Assembly: GCA_024398055.1 (NCBI GenBank)
Contig: CP073749.1
Location: forward strand, 3,224,594 to 3,288,593
DNA from: a bacterium SCSIO 12741
Lineage (GTDB): Bacteria; Bacteroidota; Bacteroidia; Flavobacteriales_G; Salibacteraceae
Reading direction: 5' to 3'
Length of the DNA: 64,000 bases
The number at the start of each line of letters is the position of its first letter. Position 1 is the first letter of the stretch. The position numbers and the translations under genes were made by a program. This document shows, in pieces, positions 27,886-36,732 of this stretch. The notes beneath the pieces are model-generated. The model was not told the DNA's origin and did not search any database. It saw only the letters and a program-made list of their open reading frames with translations.

Positions 27886-30800
27886 CTATTTCAGGATCGA
27901 AAGAGAACCGAGCTCTTCGTGTCGATTCTTTTCGTTTTTGGCATCACCTGTGATTAATTTCCAGGTGTAAACGCCTACTGGAGCAGACTCGCCGGACTTA
28001 CCAACGGTTCCATCCCAAGATTCATTGTAGTCTCTGGATTCGAATACCAATCCACCCCAACGGTCATAAACCATTACGTGGTAGAAATCCAATTCAAATC
28101 CTGTACCAACCGGTTTCCAGGTATCGTTTTTACCATCGCCATTAGGCGTGAAGCTCGTTGGCACATAGATGGTAAAGTCAGGTCTAATGGTGATGTACAT
28201 GATGGTGTCATCTTCACAACCCAGATTGTTGACCACATCCAAGCGAACAGGGTATTTGCCTGCTTCCTCTTCAGGGAAAGTGAAACGTGCGTTCTGAGTC
28301 ATGGAAGTATCCAATCCTGCGAAGTTCCAGCGCCATTCTACGAGTTTTCCATCAGATTCGTCTTTAAACTTGATTTTGGTGTCAAGTAGAGTAGTAGGCT
28401 GAGGACTCATGCTGAAGGATGCTGTAGGCACTTCGTATACGTCCATGTAGTTCTTTCTTACCAAGGAATCCACACAACCATCGGTACTGGTTACCACCAA
28501 TTTCACGTCGTACTTACCACTCTGGGTATAGGTCTTGTCAACACTTCTACAGGTAGTAGCACTGGTTTCATCACCGAAGGACCATTCACATTTTGCTGAT
28601 GCATTGGTCAGGTTCTGGAACCCTACTGTAAGTGGAGGACATCCAGCGGCTGTATCAGAGCTAAAGTCAACCACCGGTTGTGGCATAACAGCGATAGTCA
28701 CACTATCCATTACTTCTGGTGTACCACACTCATCGCTTAACATCAAGTAGTAAGTAGTGGTTTTCTCAGGAGAAGCATTCGGCTGTGCAATGAAGGCATT
28801 AGACAAGCCAACGAATGGTTGCCACAAGTATTTGTATCCGTCTCCTTTTCCACCCAGGGCCTTAGCCTTGAGCTTAGTGTTGGATCCTTTACAGATAGCG
28901 GTGTCATTTGGCATTTCGATGGACAAGGAATCAAACAAGTTAACCTTCATCAAAAGTCCGTTCGATGCACAACCGCGGTTGTCAGTTGCATATACCGAGT
29001 AGATCGAATTTGCATCCGGACACACATTAGCCACATTGGTTGAACTCACAGATGGAGTCCAGTGGTACTGGTGCTGTGGACTGTTTCCTCCGGTGGAGAA
29101 CACTTCCAACTTAGCACAAGTAGACACACAAACCGTTGTAGAATCTTGTGGAGTAGTCAACACCATCAATGGTGGTTCAGTTACCGTAATGGCTTTGTTT
29201 CCTTTACAACCCTTTTGGTCACGTACAAACACCTGGTAAGTTTTAGCACCTACATGGGTCTTAGTTACCGAGCTATCCAACATGGCGTAGGTAGAATCTG
29301 CACCTGAAGTTGGAGGGTAGTAATTGGATCCTGAATCCAGGCTAAAGAAGAACATTCCGTTTCCACCTTTACCCTTGATGTGTAGTTCTGCATCTCCGTA
29401 TCCATAACAAGTTGGAGCTACATAATCCAGGGAATCCACAATCAGTTCTGGGACCTCCGTAATGGTAAACGTGGTATCCAATTTACATCCGTTCGCATCG
29501 CTTACTTCCATGGAGTAACCGTTGTAGGCAAACAACTTGGTGAAAGCAGAATCCTGAACTACTTGAGGTGGGTGAGTTGCACCCGACCAGGAACCTTGCC
29601 AATTGTAGTTATATGGTCCGGTGCCACCTGAAGCAGATGCTACAGCCCAGCCATCACCTTGCTTGTAACAGCTGTCGATGAAAGTAGAGAAGGAGTATTG
29701 CATCGCGTTGGGTTGAGTCAGTGTATCAAACTCTGGGAAGGCCTTACAACCATTGGCACCTCGAGCAAAAATGATGTAGGTGCCTGCTTTCAATCCGGTA
29801 AAGTTTGGAGAGTTACTCCATGTCGCTCCAGAGTCGATGCTGAAGGACAACGGTTGAACACCACCTGAAGCATGAACTGTGATTTGACCTGAGCTGTCGT
29901 TGAAACAGCCTAAGTTTTGAAGATTGATAGAGTCGATCACAGGAGCTCCTTGGTTGTACAGTACATCTACCGAAGTATCACTTACACATCCCATGCTGTC
30001 CTTTACCTGTAGGGTGTAGGTTCCGATAGGAAGATTGGTGAAGTTGCTGTCTGTTGACCAGCTGGTACCACCATTAATGGTAAACTGGTAGGGCTTAACG
30101 CCACCCGTTGGAGAGAAGGCAATTGATCCCTGACCGGTTTGACAATTCGGGTCAGTAAGCACTCCATTGGCCTTAACCGAATCGGCAAATACCGTAATAC
30201 TATCTACGATGGTACAGCTACAAGTATCTGTATAGGTCAATTTGAGCACCGTAGTTTGCGTCAAAGAAACCTTTGGATTTGGAATACTTGGATCGCTAAA
30301 CGCAGAGGCTGGAGTCCAGCTAAAGGTACTTTGTCCACAACCTGTGAAATAGGTCGGATTAAGCTGGAAGCTATCTCCGGCACAGATGGCAGTATCGTTT
30401 CCGATTTCCAATTCCGCAACCAGGATTTTGATAGAAGCTGTATCGCTACACTTATCGAAAGTATCGGTAACCAATACGTTGTAAGTCTGAGTAGTGTTGA
30501 TGGTAGCCTCTGGATTTTGCAAGGTATCAAAGTTCAACCCTGCTGAAGGCGTCCACTTATAGGTAAACTCTTTGGGGTCACGAGATCCACAATAGTTCAC
30601 CTGAAGAGTAGGGCGGTTCAGGTTGTTACTCAAACTCAACATTTGAGAGGTACAGGAAGACAAGGTTCCATAATCGGACAAACAAGTTGGTGCCAATGTA
30701 GAAACGTAGGCCACTGACGCATTGGAAGAAGCAGCACCCGAGGAGTTGTCCCAGCAGATTTCTACCAAGAGAGAACTGTTTCCATCGTAGTTGTAGTTGT

Positions 30801-33125
30801 TGTCTAACTGGTGCGTATTCCAACCAGCAACGGGACTTACCGTTTTTGGGTTGAAAACCGTTACTGCATTTTGCTCCCAAGAGGTCAAGGTTGTCTTGGT
30901 AGCAGGCAAACATTTGAGCTTGATGGTGTACCCTGCAATGGAACCGGCACCATTGGTGCTCACCACATTAAATCCGATGGATTCAATGATTCCGGCGGTA
31001 ACTCCCATGGCATTCAATTCAGCAGCTGTATATAGGAACTGTTGACGTGCCTTAACCTGACCAGCTCCATAAGGACAAGGCCAGTTTGAAGCACCGGTGC
31101 TACCCGAACCAGTTGAGTTTGCGGTCGAGTTACTGGTGCTGTACAAGAAAGAACTGGTACAGTAGTTCGTTGTCGTACCACAAGAGGATGGCATGGCCCC
31201 CAGGGATAGTGAAATCTGCGTAGGTGTACCAGGACACGCTGGATTCGGCATGGCAGAGACCAGAATACTATCCGGCATAGGTGGAGTAACGGCCACGAAT
31301 ATCGAATCTCGTTTGGTACATCCAGAATCCGAAACAATGGTAAATGGATAGTACTGACTCGTTATTGGAGTGGCTATCGGATTTTGAATGGTGTCGTCAG
31401 ACAGGGTAGAATTCGTATCCCATTCATAGGTATAAGAGAAGTGGGTTGAATCGGTACCAATAAACAGATTAGCTATGCTATCACTAAAACATATCAGGGT
31501 ATCCGAAGTTTTGATCACATTGTAATTCTTGGCCGCAACGATCTTAACAGAATCTCGATCCTTACAGGCCGAAGCCTTTACACAGCCCTCTTTCATATCT
31601 GACCATACTTCGAGGTAGGTTGTCTTTTTCGGGAAGAATCGTATGATTTTATTCGTGTCCCTCGCATTGGTATCACCCCAGGCATTGACCCCCCATTCAA
31701 GGGTATCTCCATAAACGGTATTCCATTTATAACTATAGCCGCCCGAAGCCTCAAGGGTTACGGTATCAAAATTCATACATACGGCTAAATCAGGTCCTGC
31801 ATAGGTGGAATTTCGAACTTGAACTTCAAATACCGAAAATCCATTACCTGGATAGGTACATCGGTCATCATTGTATACGAGATAGAAGGTTTTTACAGGA
31901 TTCAGGCCTATGCTCGCCACCCAGCTGAATTTGACCACGGCCTTGTTTCGAGCCAAGTGGGTAACTGTCATGGTGGAATTCGGCATTACCTTATCGTAGT
32001 TGGATTCGAAAATAAGGGTGTCCGCTGCATCCGCATCAACAATGGTATCTTCAAAGGTGATAGTATCACCATTACACACCTGGACCGTAAACTTGGACAG
32101 CCTTTGAGCAGTTTTACCGGTAACATTGGTGACACCCGAAACATCAATTGGGATGTTGTTTGCACAAGCCGTCACCCGGAACTGAACATCACGTAAGGTT
32201 TGAGCCTTCCAGCGACCCGTACAACGTTCGTATTCTTTTACCCAAAAGGCGACCACCCGTTTTCCGGCGGAGGCAGGCGTGAAATCGATCAATCCGGTTC
32301 TGGTGTTTAGACTAAAGTTGGCGCCTGGGGCCTGGGCAGTGAATGCACCGGTATAGTTTACACAGGTGGTTTCGTTTTGCATAGCGCAGGTTAGTTCATA
32401 AACCAAGCTGTCTCCCTCACCATCAATTGTTCCTAAACCGTAAAGTACGCGTTTACCCACACAAGCCGAAGGAATAGGTTTTACTTCATCCGCAAAATCA
32501 GGTGCACTGTTTTGGGGGAAGTTCAAGTTGTCAAATCGGGTTTCTACATACATATTACCCGAGTTGGTGTTTGAGTTAGCCGTATTCCGACAACAACGAG
32601 GTTTATAGCCGAACACCCAGTAATTACACTGAGTTAAAGAAATAATACCAAAATATTTGAATCGAAGGTATCCTTGAGCGGTACCATTTCGGCAGTTGGA
32701 TCGTGGCGTAGTGGCTGGATTTAGCACATTGTCACACAAATCCGATACTTCCTCGGCTACAAGTTGTACTCCACCGGTAGTGGTAGATTGTACTCCTGGG
32801 TATGGACCTGCAAAAGGAACGGGTGTGGGAGCTACAAAGGGTAGGTGGTTAAGCACGAAATTGTTAGACGGGCCACCGCTTGAACATTGGTAGGTTACCG
32901 TTTCGGTAGCGTAGTTATATGAGGCTCCAGAACAATCGCGGAAAACGGCTGTTTCTATATAATACAGGTATCTTCCCGGAACGGTATCTGGACCAACATA
33001 CTTAAATTTAATACTACCCCAGAAACGTGAGTAGCATGGGCGCTTTGAAAAGCCAGCGTCCCAGCAATGAATAGAAAAAGCGACAGCAAGGGTCGCCTGT
33101 AATTAATGGGTGATGATAATGACAT
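27886..33125 (-). CDS. Giant SprB-repeat/PKD adhesin with type B T9SS sorting domain, apparent one-base frameshift
   Basis: The ATG at 33125 gives a signal peptide (RRPLLSLFLFIAGTLAFQSAHA) and the family opening THVSG. The frame then breaks near the CCCC run at 33017-33020 and continues as GSIKFKYVGPDTVPGRYLYY. Adding one base gives 1746 residues without interruption. Order: an N-terminal beta domain with conserved FRDCSG, Cys-rich segments, a jelly-roll-like region (about 600-750), at least five SprB repeats (GxYTLQVKDSMGCVSD type), PKD domains (KCEWSFGDETSAT and EWRWNFAGLD), and a type B CTD from VPTSFTPNGDGKNDTWKPV to SLSILK. It should be a cell-surface adhesin exported by T9SS, possibly moved by gliding machinery. 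It is monocistronic, with a strong terminator. Confidence 0.88.
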
Positions 33126-33423
33126 AGTACGATTCGTTTATTGGCTTTCCGGAGATAAAGCTACGCTATACAATAGGGGTAGAAGACGGCCAATTGCTCA
33201 AACCGGGAGGTGAATGTATTATTTTGAGTTCTCGTTTTGTGAAATGTAATTAACTGAAAATCAAGTAATTGCAAGGGTTTGGTTTTTTCGTCCATTGAAA
33301 GAGCTTTCTTATGGCACGAGATCGGTTTTTTACAAAACCCGAATTTTTGGGAGCACCAAGAAAAAATTCACTTATCCCTTCTACCCGAAGGCATTTTTTT
33401 AGTTTAGCAGCGATACCGGACCT
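33126..33423. other. Divergent intergenic region, adhesin / cysteine dioxygenase fusion
   Basis: Nearly 300 bases between two divergent genes. It must hold the promoters of both, but I see no full TTG-N19-23-TAnnTTTG match. The nearest is TAGTTTAG at about 33401-33408, before the plus-strand gene. No RNA gene or strong hairpin was seen. Confidence 0.3.
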
Positions 33424-34824
33424 ATGAAAAGAGTACTTCAGGCATTAGAAAAAATTAATAAGCTCCCCCTCAAGGAGATGCCCTATCAAGAAGGGTACGA
33501 TCAAGTATTTGATTGGCTGACGGAAATCGATTTCGCACAAGTAGATATTACCGGGTATGAACCTCCCGATCCTGCGGCTGATAATTATTCCAAACGAGTC
33601 ATTCAAATGAATCCCTTTGAGGCGGTTCTAATTCATTGGCCGGCGGGAATGGAATCAGCGGTCCACCTGCACCAAGGCTTTTGGGGTTTTGTAGCTGTCG
33701 TCCAAGGAAAGTTGGAGAACTATGAATACCACCTGGAAAATCGGCAGCTTAAGGAATGGAGGGTGACGGAAGGAATTCCCGGGGCGCTTCTTCAAGAACC
33801 TGATGGAGTAATCCACAAATTGGTCAATCCGAGTTCTACTGAAAGTGCGGTTACCATTCATTTCTATTATCCTCCGCTGGAGAGTTATGAGGGAATGAAA
33901 ATCTTTGACCTCGAAAACTGTCGTTTAGGTATATTAAACGATCAGGCGAATACGGCTTCCTGGGTGGAACCAGAGAGTTCTTTTAAAAAGATCACCGAAC
34001 AGGCCTTTAAGTTTTTGGCTCTCGATGAGTATAGAACCTCTTCACACTACATTCATCCGGTAATTCCCAAGCCAGCATCCGAAGCCATTCGAAAGGGGTT
34101 GAGTGCCTATTATTCGGAACAGGCTCACCAGTATGACTTTTTTGATCTGCAACATGAAATGCGCCGGAAGTACACTGAAAAGATCAATGAACTCATTGCC
34201 CGAGAAATTAGAATCAATCATTCTGATACCCAAAACTTCTTAGCCCTGGCATGTGGCACGGGCCGACGAATTACGGAGATAAGAGAACAGGTTGGATTTC
34301 ACTTCTCTGTTCTTGGAGTTGACTTGAGTGCCGAGATGGCCAACGTGGCAAAAAATCGGGGTATTGAGACTCTTGTTGGTGATTGGCTGGAAGTAGATCT
34401 AAACGGCGAATTATACGACGGCGCAACTTTTCTTTATGCCTTTGGTCATTTGGAATCCTCAGAAGTGAGAAGGCGATCGCTGAAAAAAGTACTTAACTCC
34501 ATTCGTCCAGGGGCACCCGTTTTCTTCGATGTTTTCAATCTGGAAGACAAAAATGAATGGGGCGGTAGGGCTAATACCTATTACCGGGAGCAGAGCCTTC
34601 ATCGCTTTGGATATGAGCGTGGAGATGTGTTCTATAAGAAATCCGGAGGAGAGGCTGTTGCCTTTCTGCATTACTTTACCGAAGAAGAAGTTCGTAGTGC
34701 TTTAGAGGATGTTGGATTTGAAGTGGCCTGGATCAAGCATATTGGATACGCCAAAAAATCAGGCATGGTTCTCGAAACCAAAAATGAAGGATCTTTGTTT
34801 GTTAAAGCAATAAAGCCGAAGTAA
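33424..34824 (+). CDS. Cysteine dioxygenase-like cupin fused to a SAM methyltransferase
   Basis: A 466-residue two-domain protein. Residues about 20-175 look like type I cysteine dioxygenase: IHWPAGMESAVHLHQGFWG has the metal pair His81 and His83, VVQGKLENYEY follows, and His131 (GVIHKLVNPS) supplies the third ligand. This is the three-His iron site of thiol dioxygenases. Residues about 225-466 are a class I methyltransferase with motif I ALACGTGRR (274-282), acidic Asp300 in GVDLSAEM and a Tyr/Phe-rich C terminus. The join suggests that a thiol (for example cysteine) is oxidised and then the product or a partner is methylated. This is inference and the true substrate is unknown. It is followed directly by pdxH. 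Confidence 0.82.
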   Translation: MKRVLQALEKINKLPLKEMPYQEGYDQVFDWLTEIDFAQVDITGYEPPDPAADNYSKRVIQMNPFEAVLIHWPAGMESAVHLHQGFWGFVAVVQGKLENYEYHLENRQLKEWRVTEGIPGALLQEPDGVIHKLVNPSSTESAVTIHFYYPPLESYEGMKIFDLENCRLGILNDQANTASWVEPESSFKKITEQAFKFLALDEYRTSSHYIHPVIPKPASEAIRKGLSAYYSEQAHQYDFFDLQHEMRRKYTEKINELIAREIRINHSDTQNFLALACGTGRRITEIREQVGFHFSVLGVDLSAEMANVAKNRGIETLVGDWLEVDLNGELYDGATFLYAFGHLESSEVRRRSLKKVLNSIRPGAPVFFDVFNLEDKNEWGGRANTYYREQSLHRFGYERGDVFYKKSGGEAVAFLHYFTEEEVRSALEDVGFEVAWIKHIGYAKKSGMVLETKNEGSLFVKAIKPK

Positions 34825-35475
34825 ATGGGAATGGTTAACAATTACCTGAATCAAATTCGACACGAATTTGCCTCTCAAAGTCTGGATCTTGAATCGGTGG
34901 AGGATAATCCCATCAACCAATTGGAGAAATGGATAACCGAAGCGGTGGATTCTCAATTGTTGGAACCCAATGCGATGTCGGTAAGTACGGTGTCAACAAA
35001 TGGTGAACCTACTTCAAGGGTGGTTTACTTAAGAGGATTGGATGACAAAGGGCTTCGCTTTTATACGAATTACCTGAGTCGGAAAGGGCAAGATGTTGAG
35101 TCGCACCATCAGGTTGCGCTTTTATTTTTTCATGCTGAGCTTGAGCGCCAGGTTCGGGTCAACGGAAGAATTGAAAAACTGAGTGAGGAAGAATCAGATG
35201 CCTATTTCAACGCTCGCCCTGTAGAAAGTAAGCTGGGAGCTTGGGCTTCTGAACAAAGCCAGGAAATTGCTTCCCGACAAACCTTAAAGAATAGGCTTGA
35301 AGAATTTCGTCAGAAGTTTAGTGACGATGTTCCTCGTCCGCCACATTGGGGAGGTTATCTCGTTGTTCCTCATCGAATGGAGTTTTGGCAGGGACGTCCT
35401 GCTCGCTTGCATGATCGGATGGTGTATACCTTGGAAGAAGCTTCCAACTGGACCCTTAAGCGCTTAGCTCCCTAA
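34825..35475 (+). CDS. pdxH: Pyridoxamine 5'-phosphate oxidase
   Basis: FMN enzyme that oxidises pyridoxine or pyridoxamine 5'-phosphate to pyridoxal phosphate. Full-length (216 residues), with typical segments NAMSVSTVSTNGEPTSRVVYLRG, FYTNYLSRKGQDV, ALLFFHAELERQVRVNGRIEKL, SKLGAWASEQSQ, PPHWGGYLVVPHRMEFWQGR and the C-terminal LKRLAP. The start codon follows the stop of the fusion gene without a gap, indicating one operon. The PLP product could serve the PLP enzymes of the cell at large; a special link to its neighbour is possible but unproven. Confidence 0.95.
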   Translation: MGMVNNYLNQIRHEFASQSLDLESVEDNPINQLEKWITEAVDSQLLEPNAMSVSTVSTNGEPTSRVVYLRGLDDKGLRFYTNYLSRKGQDVESHHQVALLFFHAELERQVRVNGRIEKLSEEESDAYFNARPVESKLGAWASEQSQEIASRQTLKNRLEEFRQKFSDDVPRPPHWGGYLVVPHRMEFWQGRPARLHDRMVYTLEEASNWTLKRLAP

Positions 35476-35478
35476 TTC

Positions 35479-36732
35479 ATGGGACTCAATCCATACCTGG
35501 AGCGCAATCGTTTCCTTTCCCGACAAATATCAAGTACGCCGGCTTCTGATTTGAGCTTAGTGGTGGTCATTCCCTCGCATGACGAGCCGGATTTGATTGG
35601 ATCACTTACCAGCCTTTCAGATTGTACCTTGCCCGAAGGCTCGGTGGAGGTTATAGTGGTCATAAATGCTTCAGAGGCCGATGATCCACTTCTAAAGGAA
35701 AGAAATCTGGCATCTCTGAATCAAGCTCAATCCTGGGCTAAGGATCATCAAAAAGAAGGTTTGGCGTATCATTTCATCTTACAAAACGAGTTGCCCCGAA
35801 AACATGCTGGAGTGGGCTTGGCCCGGAAGATAGGAATGGATGAAGCTGTTGATCGATTGGATCAAGTGGATAATCCGGAAGGAGTTATTGTATGCTTTGA
35901 TGCTGATTCACGGTGTGAGAGCAATTATTTTCAGGTCCTGGAAACCGCTTTTGATCAGCATCCGAAATGGGGTGGGGCATCCATCCACTTTGAGCATCCC
36001 CTGCAAGGAGGTGCGTTTCCTTCGGATATTTATGATGCGATCACGGCCTACGAGCTTCATTTGCGCTATCACCTCAATGGATTGCGTTATGCTGATCACC
36101 CTCAGGCCTACCATACCATTGGATCGAGCATGGCAGTTCGTAGCACTACCTATCAGAAAGAAGGGGGAATGAACCGCAGAAAGGCTGGTGAGGATTTTTA
36201 CTTTTTACAAAAAATCATTCAGGCAAGTCCCTTTGGTGAGATTACCGATACCCAGGTGATACCTTCGCCGCGAGGATCGCATCGGGTTCCTTTTGGTACC
36301 GGAAAAGCAGTGAACGATACCCTCAATTCAGGCCAAGTTGCCTCGACTTATCCCTGGCAGGCTTATGAAGATTTAAAGGGGGTTCTACAATCGGTTATCC
36401 TCGAATACCGAAATCATGGAGGCTTCAAGGAAGCCTTTATGAATCATCAACCCGAATCGATTCAGGCCTTTTTAAAGAGCACTGATTACGAACAACGCAA
36501 AGCCGATTGGTTGCGCCATGGTACTTCCGAGCTTACTTTCTCCAAGCGGTTTTTCAGCTGGTTCAATGCCTTTCGAGCGATGAAATATGTTCATTTTGCC
36601 CGGGACCATTATTATGGTGAGCAATCCTTGGAAGAGGCCTTACCTCACTTAATGGGCGTTTTGAAATACAAAGGAGCCAACCAGTTTTCAGAGTGGCTGC
36701 TGTATTTACGCAAGCTGGACCGCAATCGTTGA
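35479..36732 (+). CDS. Family 2-type glycosyltransferase
   Basis: A 417-residue cytosolic GT-A-fold transferase, probably using a nucleotide sugar. The N-terminal Rossmann part reads LVVVIPSHDEPDLIGSL, and the metal-binding motif is CFDADSRCE (DxD). A later RRKAGEDFYFLQKI resembles the ED base region of GT2 enzymes. It has no transmembrane helices. It is the third gene of the dioxygenase/pdxH operon, 3 bases after pdxH. Its last 88 bases overlap the convergent GIY-YIG-like frame. Acceptor and donor are unknown. Confidence 0.85.
   Translation: MGLNPYLERNRFLSRQISSTPASDLSLVVVIPSHDEPDLIGSLTSLSDCTLPEGSVEVIVVINASEADDPLLKERNLASLNQAQSWAKDHQKEGLAYHFILQNELPRKHAGVGLARKIGMDEAVDRLDQVDNPEGVIVCFDADSRCESNYFQVLETAFDQHPKWGGASIHFEHPLQGGAFPSDIYDAITAYELHLRYHLNGLRYADHPQAYHTIGSSMAVRSTTYQKEGGMNRRKAGEDFYFLQKIIQASPFGEITDTQVIPSPRGSHRVPFGTGKAVNDTLNSGQVASTYPWQAYEDLKGVLQSVILEYRNHGGFKEAFMNHQPESIQAFLKSTDYEQRKADWLRHGTSELTFSKRFFSWFNAFRAMKYVHFARDHYYGEQSLEEALPHLMGVLKYKGANQFSEWLLYLRKLDRNR

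What the first reader, a model, noticed from the sequence alone, without database searches (positions are those of the whole stretch)
33424..36732. Cysteine dioxygenase-methyltransferase fusion in an operon with pdxH and a glycosyltransferase
A three-His cupin dioxygenase (His81, His83, His131) is joined to a SAM methyltransferase (ALACGTGRR) in one chain. It is followed at 0 and 3 bases by a PLP-making enzyme and a GT2 enzyme. The combination suggests a small-molecule pathway from oxidised sulfur amino acid, perhaps sulfinate or sulfonate chemistry; the product is unknown.
Basis: partly seen in the sequence, partly recalled or inferred. Interest (0 to 1): 0.6.

Follow-up and report, generated by a model that had tools for sequence, protein, structure and literature searches.

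The report
Cysteine dioxygenase fused to a methyltransferase
A bacterial enzyme that probably oxidises the sulfur of cysteine is joined in one chain to a methyl-transferring enzyme; the fusion is real, rare and shared by several lineages of Bacteroidota, but the glycosyltransferase at the end of its operon is an older partner of pdxH and is no evidence for one shared pathway.

Summary
Window 33424-34824 encodes one 466-aa chain: an Arg-type cysteine dioxygenase domain (all three iron His invariant in 37 of 37 non-redundant fusions) joined to a class I SAM methyltransferase. AlphaFold models the whole chain confidently. pdxH follows at 0 bases and a GT2-like gene at 3 bases. The fusion is not unique: 37 non-redundant copies, nearly all from Bacteroidota MAGs and mostly Flavobacteriales, but it is rare. 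The operon reading is only partly right. The pdxH-GT pair is widespread in Bacteroidota without the fusion, so the GT says nothing about it. pdxH lies directly downstream of 18 of 37 fusions, in at least three different surroundings and beside pdxH genes of different descent; that link may mean something. Other fusions sit beside an isoaspartyl peptidase or unrelated genes. CDO-only relatives sit at the same loci as fusions, so the methyltransferase was probably lost at least twice. Best reading: an O2-dependent cysteine-thiol dioxygenase coupled to methylation, most likely of an amine on the same cysteine-derived molecule. Substrate and product are unknown. A new combination of known enzyme families, not a new kind of system.

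The parts
33424..34824 (+). CDO-methyltransferase fusion gene, 466 aa
   Evidence: ORF and Pfam; model pLDDT 94.6, pTM 0.89
33424..34041 (+). Cupin/CDO part, residues 1-206; iron ligands His81 (33664-33666), His83 (33670-33672), His131 (33814-33816); Lys57 (33592-33594) at the usual Arg position; His146 and Tyr148 of the SHY-type triad
   Evidence: PF05995; conservation in 37 fusions; alignments to solved CDOs
34042..34821 (+). Class I SAM methyltransferase part; SAM loop LALACGTGRR at residues 273-282 (34240-34269)
   Evidence: PF13649; alignment; fold search
34825..35475 (+). pdxH, pyridoxamine 5'-phosphate oxidase, 216 aa
   Evidence: TIGR00558 264 bits, cut-off 180
35479..36732 (+). GT2-like glycosyltransferase, 417 aa; belongs to an older pdxH-GT pair rather than to the fusion
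   Evidence: Window protein 17.8 vs 23.3 bits; relatives to 9.7e-12; Asp141 and Asp143 invariant; GT2-type fold hits; pair without fusion

Best explanation
A soluble two-domain enzyme. Shown by sequence and model: the N-terminal cupin carries a complete Arg-type thiol-dioxygenase site and the C-terminal domain a SAM-binding fold. Inferred: the cupin binds Fe(II), takes L-cysteine (thiolate and amine on iron, carboxylate held by the Arg or Lys at position 57) and uses O2 to make cysteine sulfinate. Inferred, weaker: the attached domain methylates an amine of the same cysteine-derived molecule, so the chain makes an N-methylated sulfinate amino acid or its precursor. pdxH next door would at most supply PLP for a later step or be co-regulated; the GT belongs to pdxH's own older pair.
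For: Tyr55, Trp72, His81, His83, His131, Tyr148 invariant and Arg57 (36 of 37), His146 (36 of 37) in fusions; nearest solved structures are B. subtilis CDO by sequence (1.7e-9) and by fold (4qm9, TM 0.81 over the target). Arg-type versus Gln-type distinction: PMC8050391. Methyltransferase profile finds N-methyltransferases high in the list: aminosugar N,N-dimethyltransferases, glycine sarcosine N-methyltransferase, bacillithiol N-methyltransferase NmbA. Fusion kept in 37 chains down to 31% identity. pdxH directly downstream in 18 of 37.
Against: The window itself has Lys, not Arg, at position 57. The methyltransferase has been lost in CDO-only relatives at the same loci, so it is not essential to the dioxygenase. 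Its similarity to N-methyltransferases is mostly the common SAM core at 12-22% identity, and C-methyltransferases and other classes score alike. No neighbour other than pdxH points to a product.
Confidence: 0.35

Rival explanations
1. A plain cysteine-catabolic CDO that carries a methyltransferase working on a different substrate; the fusion only co-expresses two functions.
For: CDO-only forms persist at the same loci: L005/L066 versus L004/L050 between gltS and lptG, L006 versus L032-L035 before pdxH.
Against: The methyltransferase subfamily was found essentially only fused to this CDO in 395 class genomes, which suggests linked chemistry.
Confidence: 0.25
2. The chain acts on a low-molecular-weight cysteinyl thiol such as bacillithiol: the dioxygenase oxidises it, or the methyltransferase modifies it as NmbA does.
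For: NmbA is among the nearest solved relatives of the methyltransferase domain (7.8e-9 by profile; ranks 5-6 by fold). 63% of bacillithiol-making Bacteroidota encode NmbA (PMC12719100).
Against: The genome has its own separate NmbA orthologue (L162, 46% to L024, which matches NmbA at 1.2e-37); identity of the fused domain to NmbA is only 16-17%; Arg-type sites fit free cysteine.
Confidence: 0.12
3. A thiol, sulfide or metalloid detoxifying S-methyltransferase with a cupin accessory domain, by analogy with TehB fused to a DUF1971 cupin.
For: Same overall plan, N-terminal cupin and C-terminal methyltransferase; weak DUF1971 hit (0.04) and weak PRK12335 TehB hit (0.038).
Against: Both far below curated cut-offs; the cupin is a CDO with a full iron site.
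Confidence: 0.12
4. One reading: fusion, PdxH and GT form one small-molecule pathway.
For: Tight spacing, 0 and 3 bases; the same trio in L032, L033, L035 and L069/L120.
Against: pdxH-GT occurs without the fusion in many genomes including the window's own family (L078-L083, L087, L090); the window pdxH groups with those at SH-aLRT 99; the PhoD/RlmI group has fusion-pdxH without GT.
Confidence: 0.06

Closest known systems
Arg-type bacterial cysteine dioxygenase (B. subtilis YubC, PDB 3eqe, 4qm8, 4qm9; PF05995)
   Same: Cupin fold, three His, SHY-type triad, Arg that binds the cysteine carboxylate, Gly in place of the mammalian crosslink Cys
   Different: Extra C-terminal methyltransferase; Thr for Ser in the triad in most members; Lys for Arg in the window
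NmbA, bacillithiol N-methyltransferase (PDB 9ri2)
   Same: Class I SAM methyltransferase core, related at profile level; acts on the amine of a cysteinyl thiol
   Different: Not fused; 16-17% identity; the window's genome has a separate NmbA orthologue
TehB with N-terminal DUF1971 cupin (NCBIfam PRK12335)
   Same: Cupin followed by a methyltransferase in one chain
   Different: Different cupin and methyltransferase families; all cut-offs missed
Canonical CDO beside a group II PLP decarboxylase and a sodium/solute symporter (L021, L027; same family of bacteria)
   Same: CDO near PLP-dependent chemistry
   Different: There the neighbour is a decarboxylase, as in hypotaurine synthesis; here it is the PLP-making enzyme and no decarboxylase is adjacent

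Membership tests
Cysteine dioxygenase (PF05995), Arg-type | Family profile over curated cut-off | tested here: met
   45.7 bits vs 23
Cysteine dioxygenase (PF05995), Arg-type | Three His iron ligands | tested here: met
   Invariant in 37 of 37 fusions and 5 of 5 CDO-only
Cysteine dioxygenase (PF05995), Arg-type | Ser-His-Tyr triad | tested here: met
   His 36 of 37, Tyr 37 of 37; first residue Thr in 33 and Ser in 4
Cysteine dioxygenase (PF05995), Arg-type | Arg at the carboxylate-binding position | tested here: inconclusive
   Arg in 36 of 37; the window has Lys57 followed by Arg58
Cysteine dioxygenase (PF05995), Arg-type | Fe(II)/O2-dependent oxidation of cysteine | not testable with these tools
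   Needs an enzyme assay
Class I SAM-dependent methyltransferase | SAM loop and Rossmann-like fold | tested here: met
   ACGTGRR; Pfam over cut-off; fold hits
NmbA bacillithiol N-methyltransferase | E below 1e-20, identity over 25%, coverage over 80% (criteria in PMC12719100) | tested here: not met
   7.8e-9 by profile and partial; 16-17% identity
OvoA C-terminal methyltransferase (TIGR04345) | Curated cut-off of 170 bits | tested here: not met
   14.2 bits
TehB with cupin (PRK12335 / DUF1971) | Curated cut-offs (303 and 23.1 bits) | tested here: not met
   13.1 and 14.3 bits
PdxH | TIGR00558 cut-off of 180 bits | tested here: met
   264.4 bits
GT2 glycosyltransferase | PF00535 over cut-off and a DxD motif | tested here: inconclusive
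   Window 17.8 vs 23.3 bits, relatives to 9.7e-12; invariant Asp141 and Asp143; GT2-type fold hits

The most novel reading that the evidence does not exclude
A bifunctional enzyme that oxidises and N-methylates cysteine or a cysteinyl thiol in one chain, giving an undescribed N-methylated sulfinate (or, after PLP-dependent decarboxylation, an N-methyl hypotaurine or taurine type solute) in Bacteroidota.
Probability: 0.2. Interest if true: 0.65.

Novelty: new variant of a known kind. Interest (0 to 1): 0.4.

Why it matters
No paper found in the searched library describes a CDO-methyltransferase fusion. If both domains act on one molecule, it would reveal an unknown sulfur metabolite in environmental Bacteroidota, and a simple enzyme assay would show it. 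The pdxH link, repeated in separate surroundings, makes a PLP-dependent next step a testable guess.

Tried and rejected
Three-gene pathway: rejected as main reading because pdxH-GT is independent of the fusion. A single moving fusion-pdxH cassette: unlikely, since pdxH genes beside fusions group with fusion-free pdxH of the same surroundings; independent insertion and an ancestral pair with many losses could not be told apart. NmbA, OvoA and TehB membership: tested, not met. Standalone copies of the methyltransferase as a clue to its substrate: none close in 395 class genomes, only a 29% hit, L144. Viral copies: none. Close plasmid copies: none. Cysteine sulfinate decarboxylase: the genome has two PF00282 proteins, only 26-31% identical to those beside canonical CDOs and not near the fusion. 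Sulfonolipid link: no paper connected it to CDO.

Full report
Observation. The 466-aa ORF at 33424-34824 is uninterrupted and carries CDO_I and methyltransferase domains over Pfam cut-offs. pdxH follows at 0 bases and a GT2-like gene at 3 bases.

Reality of the fusion. The same two-domain chain appears in the window's family and order, in 7 of 395 class genomes counting the window, and in 33 of the 37 loci from the named genome collection, nearly all titled as Bacteroidota MAGs: Flavobacteriales (with Crocinitomicaceae, Cryomorphaceae and Salibacteraceae named), Chitinophagales and Cytophagales. After removing duplicates there are 37 fusions and 5 CDO-only chains in the alignment. A 396-genome sample of the phylum returned only the window at E 1e-40, so the gene is rare. 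Viral contigs gave nothing. The genome-contig scan works from peptide patterns, so distant fusions in other phyla could have been missed.

Active sites. Tyr55, Trp72, His81, His83, Gly88, His131 and Tyr148 are invariant in the 37 fusions and in the CDO-only forms; Arg57 in 36 (Lys in the window) and His146 in 36. I equate these with rat Tyr58, Trp77, His86, His88, Cys93, His140, Tyr157, Arg60 and His155; the rat numbering rests on my own knowledge, with Tyr157 and Arg60 confirmed in PMC8050391 and the alignments. This is an Arg-type site, the type that binds cysteine. The nearest solved structure is B. subtilis CDO by sequence (1.7e-9) and by fold (4qm9, TM 0.81 over the target). The methyltransferase domain has an invariant SAM loop and its own conserved motifs outside the core. 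Small-molecule N-methyltransferases rank high among its known relatives, but at 12-22% identity, mainly through the core, and other methyltransferase classes score alike. The whole chain is modelled at pLDDT 94.6 and pTM 0.89.

Neighbourhood. In Bacteroidota genomes without the fusion, pdxH is often followed directly by the same GT, with YqgE and a MiaE-like gene divergently upstream and an aminotransferase IV gene beyond in many of them. This includes family members of the window (L078-L083, L087, L090). The window pdxH groups with six such genes at SH-aLRT 99. So the GT is pdxH's partner. The fusion stands directly before pdxH in 18 of 37 cases: in the YqgE/MiaE surroundings (L032-L034, L069; L035 is cut by the contig end), in a PhoD...RlmI-RecQ-TpiA-PrmA surrounding (L037, L039, L042-L047, L051, L067, L068), in L070 behind an AraC gene, and in the window. 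In other genomes where the fusion lies elsewhere, for example beside an isoaspartyl peptidase, pdxH still lies between PhoD and RlmI without it. So either the fusion came to lie directly upstream of resident pdxH genes of different descent more than once, or an ancestral pair was kept in a few lines and lost in many. The adjacency is therefore more than one inherited accident, but it is not universal. The names YqgE, MiaE-like, PhoD, RlmI, RecQ, TpiA, PrmA and isoaspartyl peptidase are my reading of the translated sequences; only the window genes were run against Pfam or NCBIfam.

Domain loss. G009 has a CDO-only gene between gltS and lptG, where G015 has the fusion; G004 has a CDO-only gene before pdxH-GT, where others have the fusion. 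In a quick CDO-domain tree the CDO-only rows fall in separate places among fusions (3 changes, at least 2 forced by well-supported branches). The tree is short-search and its root support is 78. The likeliest reading is repeated loss of the methyltransferase, so the dioxygenase can serve without it.

Function. Best supported is O2-dependent oxidation of cysteine or a close thiol (my estimate about 0.65 for this step alone). The second step, methylation of an amine on the same molecule, is inference (about 0.35 for the combined reading). PdxH would then support a PLP-dependent later step or merely share regulation. The genome has no second CDO, a separate NmbA orthologue, and two PF00282 decarboxylases away from the locus.

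Novelty. A new domain combination of known enzyme families. The library holds no paper that I found describing it, but it lacks most subscription journals, so absence there is weak evidence.

Noticed in passing
window 27886-33126, minus strand: A large secreted adhesin-like gene (PKD, SprB repeat, CHU_C type IX secretion domain) has its likely signal peptide (MSLSSPINYRRPLLSLFLFIAGTLAFQSAHATHVSG) in a different frame from the body, which points to one frameshift near 33000, real or a sequencing error.
   Followed up: partly
L021, L027 (G018, G003): Canonical CDO genes in the same bacterial family lie beside a PLP decarboxylase and a sodium/solute symporter, which looks like a hypotaurine-type operon.
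   Followed up: no
window 34825-36732; L078-L083, L087, L090, L104, L108, L112, L136: The pdxH-GT2 pair is widely conserved in Bacteroidota; why a PLP-making enzyme should travel with a glycosyltransferase is unexplained.
   Followed up: partly
L003/L036 (G012): The fusion stands where pdxH stands in species of the same genus (PabC> <YqgE X>), while pdxH lies on another contig.
   Followed up: partly
L052, L053, L055, L057, L058, L060: In one group the fusion is followed closely, often overlapping or within 9 bases, by an isoaspartyl peptidase/asparaginase-like gene.
   Followed up: no
L022 (G017): A CDO-like cupin that lacks the second metal His of the HxH pair (HNYNFQQGW), possibly not a dioxygenase.
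   Followed up: no
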